From positions 1-46,342 of the forward strand of contig JACCQI010000025.1 in the NCBI GenBank assembly GCA_015709315.1: a stretch of 46,342 nt of DNA, in the 5' to 3' direction. Positions 10,421-46,342 of this stretch are shown here, piece after piece. This DNA is from Desulfovibrionaceae bacterium. Its GTDB lineage: Bacteria > Desulfobacterota > Desulfovibrionia > Desulfovibrionales > Desulfovibrionaceae. Made by a program: the position numbers and the translations under genes. Within the stretch, counting starts at the first letter, position 1. Every line of letters starts with the position of its first letter. The notes below the pieces were generated by a model, which saw only the letters and a program-made list of their open reading frames with translations, had not been told where the DNA came from and searched no databases.

Positions 10421-10500
10421 TGCCTCCGGCGGCCAAGGGGGAAACCCTTTGAAAAGGGTTCTCCCCCTTGGAACCCCTTTCCTAAACTTTGTGTCGCGGC
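10421..10500 (+). repeat. Intergenic hairpin repeat, copy A
   Basis: Begins with the box TGCCTCCGGCGGCC (10421-10434), followed by a long hairpin with 9-bp outer arms CCAAGGGGG / CCCCCTTGG (10433-10441 and 10463-10471) and an inner AACCCTT / AAGGGTT stem, then the tail ACCCCTTTCCTAAACTTTGTGTCGC. Copies C (39017) and D (46271) have the same opening box. Confidence 0.7.
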
Positions 10501-10645
10501 GCAGAAACATTCGGGGCCATCGCAGCTTCCCGTTTGCGCCGATTGGTGCGGACACCAGCCTTTTATCCAAAAAACAAGGCGCGGAGACCGCACCCCCACG
10601 CCGCCAAACCAGACTTTGGTTCCCCCACAAACTTCCCGGCGGCGT

Positions 10646-10711
10646 GGCGACAAAAAGTTCTGGAAGGGGGTCCGGGGGAAACCTCTCTCAAGAGGTTTCC
10701 CCCGGTCTTCC
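10646..10711 (-). repeat. Intergenic hairpin repeat, copy B
   Basis: On the minus strand, directly after the gatB stop codon: a perfect 15-bp hairpin (10672-10686 with 10691-10705, loop 4) followed by the family tail CCCCCTTCCAGAACTTTTTG. It lacks the opening TGCCTCC box. With copy A it forms an inverted pair, tails facing inward, and may act as the gatB terminator. Between the two copies I see no gene. Confidence 0.7.
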
Positions 10712-12145
10712 TTACGAAAGTTTCTCGTTGATGAGCTTGGTCACGATGCCGGGGTTGGCCTGGCCCTTGGACAGGCGCATGACCTGGCCCATGAAGAAGC
10801 CCATGAGCTTCTTCTTGCCGCCCTTGAACGCCTCGACCTCGGCCGGATTGTCGGCCAGGACCTTGTCCACCATGGCCTCCAGCTCGGAGGAATCGGACAT
10901 CTGGACCAACCCCTTGGCCTTGACGTACTCGGCCGGGTCGTCCCCGGTCGCGCACAGGTCGCGGAAGATGTCCTTGCCGATCTTGACGGAGATGGTCCCG
11001 TCGTCCACCAGCCCGAGCAGCGCGGCCAGCTTCTCCGGGGTCAGCTTCACGCCGTCGGCCGGGGATTCGGTTTCATGGCAATACGGCAACAGTTCGCCCG
11101 CCACCCAGTTGGTGACCTTCTTGGCCTCGCCGGGATACGCCTTGACCGCCGCCTCGAAATAGTCGGCCACGGCCAGTTCGCCGGTGACGAGCGCGGCGTC
11201 GTAGTCGGCCATGCCGTAGTCGGCCATAAATCGGTCGCGCTTGGCCGTGGGCAGCTCGGGCAGCTCGGACCGCCAGGTCGCCACCCATTGCTCGTCCAGG
11301 ACCAGCGGCACCAGGTCCGGGTCCGGGAAATAGCGGTAGTCGTGGGCCTCCTCCTTGGAGCGCATGGAGTGGGTGGTGCCCTTGTCCACGTTGTAGAGCC
11401 GGGTTTCCTGAACCACTTCCTCGCCGTCCTCGACCAGGTCGATCTGGCGTTCCACCTCGTACTCGATGGCCTTCTGGATGTGCTTGAAGGAGTTGAGGTT
11501 CTTCAGCTCCGCGCGGGTGCCGAACTCCTCCTGGCCGTAGGGCCGGATGGACACGTTGGCGTCGCAGCGGAAGCTGCCCTCTTCCATGTTGCCGTCGCAG
11601 ATGCCCAGATACAGCAGCGTGGAGCGCAGCTCCTTGAGATAGGCCACGGCCTCCTCGGCGGAGCGCATGTCCGGCTCGGACACGATCTCGATGAGCGGCA
11701 CGCCGGTGCGGTTGAGGTCCACGAAGCTGGCGTTGTCGGCCGGGGAATGGATGTTCTTGCCCGCGTCCTCTTCCATATGGATGCGGGTCAGGCCCACGCG
11801 CTTCTTCTTCCCGTCCAGCTCGATGTCGACGTGGCCGTGCTCGCACACGGGCAACTCGAACTGGGAAATCTGATACCCCTTGGGCAGGTCCGGGTAAAAA
11901 TAATTCTTGCGCGCGAACACGGACTTCAGGTTGATCTCGCAATTGGTGGCCAGCCCCGCCTTGACCGCGTATTCGGCCACCTTCTCGTTGAGCACGGGCA
12001 ACACGCCGGGCATGCCGGAGCAGACCGGGCACACGTTCTCGTTGGGATCGTTGCCGAAGGTGGTGGAGCAGGAACAAAAAATCTTGGTCTTCGTCTTGAG
12101 CTGGGCGTGAACCTCCAGCCCGATGACGGTCTCGTAGCGGGACAT
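10712..12145 (-). CDS. gatB: Asp-tRNA(Asn)/Glu-tRNA(Gln) amidotransferase subunit B
   Basis: A 477-residue GatB. With GatA and GatC it amidates mischarged Glu-tRNA(Gln) or Asp-tRNA(Asn). It opens with the family signature [13 protein letters not shown] and has zinc-site cysteines in CSCS and CPVC (residues 24, 26, 39, 42). [20 protein letters not shown] kinase-domain sequence is seen in the middle ([13 protein letters not shown]), and the C-terminal YqeY-like tail ends LINEKLS. The ATG at 12145 has AGGTGAG just upstream; the GTG at 12154 is an alternative adding three residues. It is the last gene of the nadK-DUF89-mltA-DUF4254-gatB unit. gatA and gatC are not in the window. Confidence 0.95.
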
Positions 12146-12154
12146 GTCGCTCAC

Positions 12155-44810: not shown

Positions 44811-44842
44811 AAAAAACCCCGCCCGGCTCGAGCCGGACGGGG
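44811..44842 (-). terminator. Terminator of the flavoprotein gene
   Basis: On the minus strand CCCCGTCCGGCT and AGCCGGGCGGGG form a stem with one mismatch (44817-44842) followed by six T residues (complement of 44811-44816). Confidence 0.82.
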
Positions 44843-44869
44843 CAATGATCGCCTCTTTTCAGGAAACGG

Positions 44870-46267
44870 CTAGCCGCGCCGAATGATCTCCTTGGCCGGG
44901 ATCAGGGCCGTGGCCGACGCGCCCACGATGTTGCCCGCCACGCCCGGGCCGTCCCCGGCCACGAACAGCCCGTCGATGGCCGTTTCCAGGTGCTCCCGGG
45001 TGTCCACCTGGGTGGCGAAGAACTTGATCTCCGGGGCGTAGAGCAGGGTCTCGTCGTTGGACACGCCGGGCACCACGTTGTTGAGCTGTTCCAGGCCGTC
45101 CATGAGGTTGGTCAGGATGCGCTCGGGCAAGGCCATGGCGATGTCGCCGGGCACCACGTTCCTGAGGGTCGGCTCGATGTAGCCGTTGCCGATGCGGTCC
45201 CAAGTGGACCGGCGGCCGCGCCTCAGGTCGCCGAACCGCTGCAATATGGGCTTGCCGCCGCCGATGAGCGTGGCCAACCGCCCTATGGATTCGCCGTACG
45301 CCTGGTTGTCCTCCACCGGATCGTTGAGCACCACCTTGGACAGGAAGGCGAAATTGGTGTTCTCGGATTTGGTGTGCATCAGGGCATGGCCGTTGACGCA
45401 GACGAAGTCCTGGTAGTTCTCCAGCGCCACGAACCCGCCGTAGTTGGTGCAGAACGTACGGGTCTGGTCGTCGTACTTGTTGGTGCGGACGAAAAAGGTC
45501 GGGTCGTAGATGGTCTGGCAGAGGTCCTGCATGATCTCGTTGTGGACCTCCACGCGCACCCCCACCTCGATGCCCCGCTGGGACAGGCCGATGCCGTGCT
45601 GGCGGACCACATGGGCCACCCACTCCGCGCCCACGCGGCCGGGGGCCAAAATCACGTTTTTCGCCTGGTATTCCTGTCGGTTGGTGACCACTCCGGCCAC
45701 CCGCCCCTTGTCCACCAACACGTCCTTGACGGTTTCGGAGGTGTGGAAGACCACGCCCAGTTCCTGGATGTACTCGGCCATGGCCGTGATGTGGCCGGGC
45801 AGGTTGTCGCTGCCCAGGTGCTTCTGCTTGATGACCAGCAGGTCGATGCCGTGTTTGCGGGCGTCCTTGCGGATCTCCGCGGCCTTGGCCATGTCCGTGG
45901 GATAGACCCGACCGTCCATGCCGAACTTGTTGTATATGGCCTCGGTCTCGTCGATGAGCGCCTTGGCCTCGGACAGGCTCACGAACTGGGTCAGGTCGGT
46001 CTTGCCGAGCTTGTGGATGTAATTGAGCTTGCCGTCGGAAAAAAGCCCGGCCCCGCCCACGCCGCACAGGATATTGCACGGCCTGCACTTGACGCACTCC
46101 TGGTCGCCGGACAGCGGGCAGTCGCGGGCCTGGGACTTCTTGCCCTTGTCGATGAGCAGCACGTCCAGATCGGAATGCTCGCCCAGCCAATATGCGGCGA
46201 ACAGTCCGGCCGGGCCGCCGCCCACGATGATAACGTCGAAATCGGTCTTCACGGTCTTTGCAATCAT
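44870..46267 (-). CDS. FAD-dependent oxidoreductase with N-terminal cysteine cluster (COG2509-like)
   Basis: A 465-residue flavoprotein. The dinucleotide-binding motif VIIVGGGPAGLFAAYWL is at residues 12-28 and the second FAD motif IDGLFVAGDGPGVAGNIVGA is near the C-terminus. Between them it has five cysteines spaced C50-x7-C58-x2-C61-x2-C64-x3-C68, next to GVGGAGLFSDGKLN, which is characteristic of the COG2509 uncharacterised FAD dehydrogenases. The cluster could bind an iron-sulfur centre or be redox-active. The ATG at 46267 is preceded by GGAGGCAACC, the SD lying inside the repeat element that starts at 46271. No partner gene is visible. The substrate is unknown. Confidence 0.85.
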   Translation of the reverse strand: MIAKTVKTDFDVIIVGGGPAGLFAAYWLGEHSDLDVLLIDKGKKSQARDCPLSGDQECVKCRPCNILCGVGGAGLFSDGKLNYIHKLGKTDLTQFVSLSEAKALIDETEAIYNKFGMDGRVYPTDMAKAAEIRKDARKHGIDLLVIKQKHLGSDNLPGHITAMAEYIQELGVVFHTSETVKDVLVDKGRVAGVVTNRQEYQAKNVILAPGRVGAEWVAHVVRQHGIGLSQRGIEVGVRVEVHNEIMQDLCQTIYDPTFFVRTNKYDDQTRTFCTNYGGFVALENYQDFVCVNGHALMHTKSENTNFAFLSKVVLNDPVEDNQAYGESIGRLATLIGGGKPILQRFGDLRRGRRSTWDRIGNGYIEPTLRNVVPGDIAMALPERILTNLMDGLEQLNNVVPGVSNDETLLYAPEIKFFATQVDTREHLETAIDGLFVAGDGPGVAGNIVGASATALIPAKEIIRRG

Positions 46268-46270
46268 GGT

Positions 46271-46342
46271 TGCCTCCGGCGGCCGGGGGAAGGGGAGGAA
46301 AAACCCTTTGGAAAGGGTTTTTCCTCCCCTTCCCCCGGCCCC
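46271..46342 (+). repeat. Intergenic hairpin repeat, copy D (cut by window end)
   Basis: Box TGCCTCCGGCGGCC (46271-46284) followed by a perfect 29-bp hairpin: 46281-46309 pairs with 46312-46340 around a 2-base loop. The tail is beyond the window. The arms have a sequence different from copies A-C but complete self-complementarity. Confidence 0.8.

What the first reader, a model, noticed from the sequence alone, without database searches (positions are those of the whole stretch)
10421..46342. Hairpin repeat family with conserved box but covarying arms
Four intergenic elements (10421-10500, 10646-10711 inverted, 39017-39095, 46271-46342) share parts of one plan: opening box TGCCTCCGGCGGCC (absent in copy B), a hairpin, and a tail of the form CCCC-TTCCAGAACTTTTT (the tail of copy D is outside the window). 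The hairpin arms differ in sequence and length (9 plus inner stem, 15, 17 and 29 bp), yet each is almost or fully self-complementary. Change in both arms together means structure, not sequence, is kept, as in REP/REPIN elements or RNA elements.
Basis: seen in the sequence. Interest (0 to 1): 0.75.

Follow-up and report, generated by a model that had tools for sequence, protein, structure and literature searches.

The report
Gene-end hairpins with matching third strand
Dozens of short repeats at the ends of genes in this sulfate-reducing bacterium carry a hairpin and a tail that matches it base by base in the parallel direction, which a three-stranded helix would need and which ordinary base pairing or copying would not produce.

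Summary
The four elements are real and belong to a large family: the box occurs 89 times in this Pseudodesulfovibrio-type genome (reversed pattern: 1). Read in parallel, it is the complement of the hairpin's 5' half, in register from base to loop. It tracks each copy's own arm (score 12.77 against 9.31, sd 0.21, permuted), inner-stem type (93 of 123 against 54 shuffled) and C-run length (87 of 90). It recurs in other genera and changes with the hairpin at one orthologous site, gatB. I read these copies as intrastrand triple helices, akin to E. coli PIT/BoxC repeats but of another class. 71 of 89 boxes follow a sense open frame's stop codon, so a gene-end polymerase stop is my best guess. That function, the triplex itself, and RNA versus antisense DNA are unproven; copies are not independent and some controls are mixed. 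REP/REPIN is not supported: only a Y1 transposase fragment was found. Two insertion sequences target the element.

The parts
10422..10434 (+). copy A, box GCCTCCGGCGGCC
10433..10471 (+). copy A, hairpin: purine arm AAGGGGGAAA 10435-10444, inner 5' strand CCCTTTG 10445-10451
10472..10487 (+). copy A, third-strand segment AACCCCTTTCCTAAAC, then TTT 10488-10490
10672..10705 (-). copy B hairpin, no box, begins 6 nt after the gatB stop codon (10712-10714)
10657..10671 (-). copy B third-strand segment ACCCCCTTCCAGAAC; T5 on the minus strand at 10652-10656; present at the gatB locus in 6 species and co-varying there
39018..39030 (+). copy C, box, directly after a canonical terminator behind pnp
39029..39066 (+). 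copy C hairpin: purine arm AGAGGGGGAA 39031-39040, inner 5' strand CCTCTTG 39041-39047
39067..39082 (+). copy C third-strand segment ACTCCCCCTCCAGAAC, then T5 39083-39087
46272..46284 (+). copy D, box
46283..46338 (+). copy D hairpin: purine arm GGGGGAAGGGGAGGAAAAA 46285-46303; the tail is cut by the contig end

Best explanation
The purine-arm copies are dispersed gene-end repeats that fold as an intrastrand triple helix. The box is followed by a 5' arm (purine-rich outer part, then C-run, T-run, G at the loop) and its Watson-Crick partner arm. The tail then turns back along the stem as a third strand that is the parallel complement of the 5' arm up to the loop (with C kept opposite the C-run), and ends in AAAC-TTTTT. 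Shown: the family, the pairing, the register and co-variation of the third segment, and the placement behind sense stop codons. Inferred: that the third segment really lies in the groove of the stem. Inferred with less weight: that the fold forms on the antisense (template) DNA strand. There the third strand would be G at most G-C pairs and A or T at most A-T pairs, recognised triads (purine motif over the outer stem, parallel G/T motif over the inner stem). On the sense strand or in RNA the A-over-A and C-over-C positions are not standard. Inferred: that the fold stops or pauses polymerases at the gene end, as terminator or boundary. The same property could explain the contig breaks and the attraction of insertion sequences.
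For: Own arm/tail parallel score 12.77 of 18 against permuted 9.31 sd 0.21 (best of 5000: 10.04); permuted within genome 9.70 sd 0.21 (best 10.41); one copy per distinct arm (50 arms) 11.7 against 8.2 sd 0.29; antiparallel score only 4.48. Run lengths correlate position by position (0.34, 0.16, 0.34, 0.66, 0.47; the second is weak) with off-diagonal values between -0.20 and 0.30. Inner stem: TCTTG with AGAAC 6 of 6, TTTCG with AAAGC 5 of 7, TTTG with AAAC 66 of 78, TTTTG with AAAAC 16 of 32; together 93 of 123 against 54 sd 3.7, best of 10000 shuffles 69. Number of inner C equals number of tail positions in 87 of 90. Copies from other genera, 14: 0.72 against 0.57 sd 0.024, 0 of 20000. gatB orthologues: TCTTG/AGAAC in two species, TTTTG/AAAAC in two; AAACC/TTCC in one, AAAAC/TTTC in two. 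Placement: 71 of 89 boxes within 80 nt after the stop of a sense open frame of 80 or more codons against 165 of 760 random positions (no gene caller used). At gatB one relative (G156) and probably a second (G121) have a canonical terminator in the element's place.
Against: Copies replace one another at orthologous sites, so copies are not independent and the permutation figures overstate the number of events. The antiparallel control is also slightly above its permutations (4.48 against 4.08 sd 0.11, best of 5000 4.46; within genome best 4.56). In matched nearest-arm pairs over all 160 copies the antiparallel control is as positive as the parallel test (42 to 10 against 41 to 11); parallel order stands out with one copy per arm (27 to 2 against 22 to 7) and in long arms (33 to 4 against 25 to 8); in short arms it does not (9 to 8 against 13 to 3) except with one copy per arm (8 to 0 against 7 to 1). 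3 of the 14 other-genus copies match at only 5 of 11 positions. At pnp the G119 copy changed both paired arms but not the tail, and G140 fits only in part; the element there sits behind a canonical terminator that relatives keep without it, so termination cannot be its only use. At gatB 16 of 29 readable relatives have the same next gene starting within 150 nt and most of these show no terminator, so replacement of a terminator is weak evidence. E. coli PIT elements showed no terminator or promoter activity (reported in PMC4666352). No experiment here shows a triplex.
Confidence: 0.5

Rival explanations
1. RNA triple helix: the sense transcript forms the hairpin, the pyrimidine tail lies in its major groove (U.A-U, C+.G-C), and the U-run follows at once, giving a triplex-assisted intrinsic terminator or a protected mRNA 3' end.
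For: Sense orientation right behind stop codons; a T4 or longer run in the 45 nt after the hairpin in 119 of 160 copies, where it can be seen just after the third-strand segment; pyrimidine-motif triplexes are reported to form in RNA (PMC4666352).
Against: A C-rich third strand needs protonation (recalled; PMC4666352 also says acidic). A over A (124 of 1885 outer positions) and C over C-G (206 of 273 inner C positions) are not standard on this strand; G, the standard base there, is found at only 9 of 273.
Confidence: 0.22
2. Ordinary hairpin or terminator-type repeat: the tail is low-complexity C/T sequence inherited with each subfamily, and its likeness to the arm is a by-product of common descent and copying between copies.
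For: Short runs of two letters match easily; copies are exchanged at orthologous sites; the antiparallel control is also positive in matched pairs and slightly in the permutation test.
Against: Descent cannot create mirror-order agreement; the parallel score is far above the antiparallel score (12.8 against 4.5). Inner-stem type and C-count agree in register, and the agreement recurs with different sequences in other genera.
Confidence: 0.15
3. Selfish miniature mobile element (REPIN or MITE) spread by a transposase, with no use for the host.
For: Copy number varies between relatives: 0 to 137 boxes in the 30 genomes of the genus, own included. Presence and absence at orthologous sites.
Against: No intact Y1 transposase found in the draft genome; no match of a composite element in phage or plasmid collections; placement and orientation at gene ends; conservation with paired changes at gatB.
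Confidence: 0.08
4. G-quadruplex: the G-runs of tail and arm on the antisense strand are kept to form a quadruplex, not a triplex.
For: The antisense strand of long copies holds four or more G-runs of 3 to 5 (read); the E. coli study had to consider the same alternative (PMC4666352).
Against: A quadruplex needs G-runs only; it does not explain equal run lengths in register or the AAAC/TTTG, AGAAC/TCTTG and C-count agreement.
Confidence: 0.04

Closest known systems
E. coli PIT / BoxC / TM_ECO intrastrand triplex repeats (PMC4666352)
   Same: Intergenic, dispersed, G/C-rich hairpin plus in-line third strand; G.GC with A or T at A-T positions (third strand GGGTGAGGG in the paper's table); copy number varies widely between relatives.
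   Different: There: pyrimidine-purine-third strand order (class II), 9-nt stems, loops of 3-6 and 3 nt, no correlation with gene orientation, one near-fixed sequence. Here: purine-pyrimidine-third strand on the sense strand (class III, class I on the antisense strand), 8 to 24 nt purine arms, third segment running on over a non-purine inner stem, behind stop codons, many arm sequences.
Intractable hairpin gaps of Desulfovibrio desulfuricans ND132 (PMC3409199; Pseudodesulfovibrio by recall)
   Same: GC-rich hairpins with a polypurine 5' arm at junctions of two coding regions, suggested there to be strong terminators; probably members of this family (inference, sequences not compared).
   Different: Described as sequencing obstacles; no repeat family and no third strand in the passages I read.
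REP/REPIN elements with RAYT transposases
   Same: Intergenic palindromes in many copies; targets for insertion sequences (PMC1525189, search listing only).
   Different: No RAYT gene found; arms not conserved in sequence; orientation tied to the upstream gene; third segment.
Rho-independent terminators
   Same: GC-rich stem and T-run behind genes; a canonical terminator takes its place at gatB in one relative, G156, and probably in G121.
   Different: The T-run follows only after a segment of about 12-30 nt, and canonical terminators can stand directly before the element.

Membership tests
Intrastrand triplex repeat (PIT/TM kind) | three in-line segments able to form Watson-Crick stem plus third strand | tested here: met
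   (purine-arm copies only; outer triads canonical 1297 of 1440 on the antisense strand, 1202 of 1440 on the sense strand)
Intrastrand triplex repeat (PIT/TM kind) | triplex forms in vitro as an isolated strand | not testable with these tools
   needs CD, NMR or probing
TM_ECO/BoxC family itself | class II order and CCCTCNCCC...GGGNGAGGG consensus | tested here: not met
   order is purine-pyrimidine-third strand and sequences differ
REP/REPIN | RAYT (Y1) transposase in the genome | tested here: not met
   one PF01797 fragment of 48 of 121 positions near a contig end of a draft genome
REP/REPIN | conserved palindrome sequence | tested here: not met
   arms vary, box conserved
Rho-independent terminator | T-run starting 0-2 nt after the stem | tested here: not met
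   the T-run lies beyond the third-strand segment in the listed copies
Rho-independent terminator | transcripts end at the element | not testable with these tools
   no Term-seq held
Rfam families | match to a curated RNA family | tested here: not met
   window gives two tRNAs only at gathering scores
Phage- or plasmid-borne element | copies on phages or plasmids | tested here: not met
   no match to one composite query at E 0.001

The most novel reading that the evidence does not exclude
A natural bacterial repeat family in which comparative co-variation of three strands, not two, shows selection for a triple helix. The third strand follows the whole stem, switches purine strands at the inner stem, and is used as a gene-end stop.
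Probability: 0.43. Interest if true: 0.87.

Novelty: new variant of a known kind. Interest (0 to 1): 0.73.

Why it matters
In the papers I saw, natural intrastrand triplexes in bacteria rest on sequence patterns and test-tube work, without comparative proof of selection and without a known function. Here many copies with different but mutually matching strands, in several genera and at one orthologous site, make the question directly testable. They could also explain sequencing gaps and insertion hot spots in a genus that, by recall, includes the mercury-methylation model strain ND132.

Tried and rejected
REP/REPIN with RAYT: tested with PF01797 in the own genome; only a fragment. Rfam: no family in the window. 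Plasmid and phage homologues of the element: none. Antiparallel pairing of tail and arm: low score, though slightly above its permutations. G-quadruplex alone: does not explain the register. An ungapped tally of triads misplaced the inner stem by one base in many copies, so I use the gapped tally for the inner stem. My first parse of pnp neighbours failed and was repeated.

Rows dropped: the main test uses 112 of 190 purine-arm copies listed (arm under 15, no partner arm, short tail or N dropped). One search keeps 160 copies; the number before its filter was not printed. One search uses 123 of the 160. One search counts 90 of these 123 for the C-run (core found exactly, which favours agreement). 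One search sets aside 13 copies of one genus-g19 type that have no third strand, keeping 14. GatB: 29 of 30 loci readable. pnp: 26 of 29 loci parsed, one of them (G216) in a wrong frame. The model search scored only 150 of 2333 candidates, so its 66 matches are a lower bound.
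Full report
Setting. The window is one whole contig (C10) of an 87-contig, 3.28 Mb genome. An exact 24-base piece of the element in named genomes hits Pseudodesulfovibrio (12 of 13 stretches) and one Desulfovibrio, so I take the genus as Pseudodesulfovibrio; the own genome itself is unnamed.

The family. The box GCCTCCGGCGGCC occurs 89 times in the genome, 1 for the reversed pattern. A covariance model from 25 own copies gives 66 matches at E 0.01 or better, box-less copy B among them and some antisense echoes; only 150 of 2333 candidates were scored, so this is a lower bound. 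In the order 173 of 247 genomes have the box, up to 363 copies. The reversed pattern there gives 0 to 8, mostly 0-2, so genomes with one to three hits mean little. The box also precedes other hairpin types. In the own genome 56 of 89 boxes have a purine arm. Many of the rest have short stems such as CAGGGCGCTGCCCTG.

Place. 71 of 89 boxes start within 80 nt (54 of them within 16 nt) after the stop codon of a sense open frame of at least 80 codons, against 165 of 760 random positions in the same loci. No gene caller was available, so these are open frames, not annotated genes. A canonical terminator of stem 6 or more lies in the 60 nt before the box in 5 of 89 (shuffled 0.4). Copy C behind pnp is a further case that this script did not flag.

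Three strands. In the purine-arm copies the tail after the hairpin reads as the complement of the 5' arm in the same direction, for example GGGGGAAGGGGGAGAAAA with CCCCCATCCCCCTCTTTT. They hold for long copies, for one copy per distinct arm, for four of five run lengths clearly (the first A-run is weak), for inner-stem type, for the C count of the inner stem and for most of 14 copies from other genera. In one search two copies of other genera extend the rule: TTTTTG with AAAAAC and CCCCC with CCCCC (L219), TTTTTTG with AAAAAAC (L220). Mirror-order agreement is not expected from duplication, inversion or template switching, which yield direct or reverse-complement copies; this is general knowledge, not a result here.

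Caveats to the statistics. The antiparallel control in the permutation test is itself slightly above its permutations (4.48 against 4.08, sd 0.11). Matched pairs over all copies do not separate parallel from antiparallel order, and short-arm copies give no parallel excess except with one copy per arm. Orthologous sites often hold copies with quite different arms, so whole elements seem to be exchanged between sites and descent is entangled. The cleanest case is gatB: six species carry box-less copy B at the same place, and two more (G196, G163) have variant hairpins there. The inner stem and tail differ together between two and two of the six; a fifth (G251) has TTCTG with the AAAAC tail, and the sixth (G173) is more diverged. 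At pnp the G119 copy is a counter-example, and G140 fits only in part.

Which strand. In 106 distinct copies the outer positions are G/C 1066, A/T 501, A/A 124 of 1885 (gaps included). The inner C-run is C/C 206, C/T 44, C/A 12, C/G 9 of 273; inner T/A 315 of 346. On the antisense DNA strand G/C, A/T, A/A, C/C and T/A are all recognised triads (G.GC, A.AT, T.AT; the parallel G/T motif is recalled). On the sense strand A/A and C/C are not. E. coli TM_ECO third strands also use a T at one A position (sequence table). This favours DNA, moderately; the A/A positions are concentrated at one conserved place in the arm, so they are few events.

Function. At gatB one relative (G156) has a canonical terminator in the element's place and G121 probably has one, but in 16 of 29 readable relatives the same next gene starts within 150 nt, mostly with no terminator visible. 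At pnp the element follows a terminator that relatives keep without it. So a gene-end stop is plausible but not shown.

Insertion and loss. One insertion-sequence end occurs 15 times in the genome, all 15 inside the element just 3' of the inner stem. A relative of this end on an Enterobacter plasmid lies beside a transposase nearest IS481 (E 7.5e-60, below the curated cut-off). A second end occurs 9 times, each time directly after CTTTT or CTTTTT preceded by AAA or AAAG; 8 are in element tails (two of these in remnants without hairpin, L270 and L272), 1 is without an element. 37 of 89 boxes lie within 200 nt of a contig end on the hairpin side and none on the other side: 13 at the first insertion sequence, 4 at the second, 1 at a third sequence, 19 at none of these, in or near the hairpin. 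Tn7 prefers triplex-forming repeats in vitro (PMC2886061, abstract only), so structure-directed insertion is plausible.

Literature. Of PMC4666352 I saw the outline, passages, two whole sections and the first part of the introduction; of PMC3409199 and PMC1852404 passages; of PMC2886061 the abstract. Searches combining Desulfovibrio or Pseudodesulfovibrio with terminator, hairpin, repeat, palindrome, triplex or mirror-repeat terms, and searches on intrastrand triplexes, insertion into terminators, triple helices with terminators, and insertion into REP, listed no paper on this family as far as the listed titles and abstract starts tell; the lists are capped and the library lacks most subscription papers.

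Verdict. The three-strand register I hold at about 0.88, a triple helix as its reason at about 0.7, the antisense DNA strand rather than RNA at about 0.55, and a gene-end stop function at about 0.45.

Noticed in passing
L249-L263 (own genome): An insertion-sequence end (TGTGCAACCGRCAACATGGG) found 15 times, each time inside the hairpin just 3' of the inner stem; relatives suggest the IS481 family.
   Followed up: partly
L264-L272 (own genome): A second insertion-sequence end (CCTATGTGGCCTCAGG) found 9 times, each time directly after CTTTT(T) of an AAAC/AAAGC-CTTTT-like stretch; 8 in element tails; element type not identified.
   Followed up: partly
L270, L272; pnp neighbours L315, L316, L322: Element remnants with the hairpin gone and tail-like sequence kept; in L270 and L272 as if deleted between short CCGG repeats.
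   Followed up: partly
L029, L030, L046, L050, L055 and others: A second subfamily behind the same box with several small stems (CCTTCGGGG, CAGGGCGCTGCCCTG, CCAAAGGCCGAGGGCCTTTGG) and no evident third strand.
   Followed up: no
downstream of many tails, e.g. L013, L054: A small hairpin with TTC(G) loop and changing stem (CGCCTTCGGCG, CCGCTTCGCGG) follows the T-run; its sequence resembles the box.
   Followed up: no
window 10596-10647: An inverted repeat CCACGCCGCC (10596-10605) / GGCGGCGTGG (10638-10647) between copies A and B, also seen behind gatB in several relatives.
   Followed up: no
G183 and G202 loci among L222-L248 (genus g19): A near-identical short box hairpin AGGGGGAGAAGCCTCCCCCTGGACCCGG in many copies, without third strand.
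   Followed up: no
own genome contig C69 near its end, L125 1501-1644: Fragment of a Y1 (PF01797) transposase, IS200-like by recall, 48 of 121 profile positions.
   Followed up: yes
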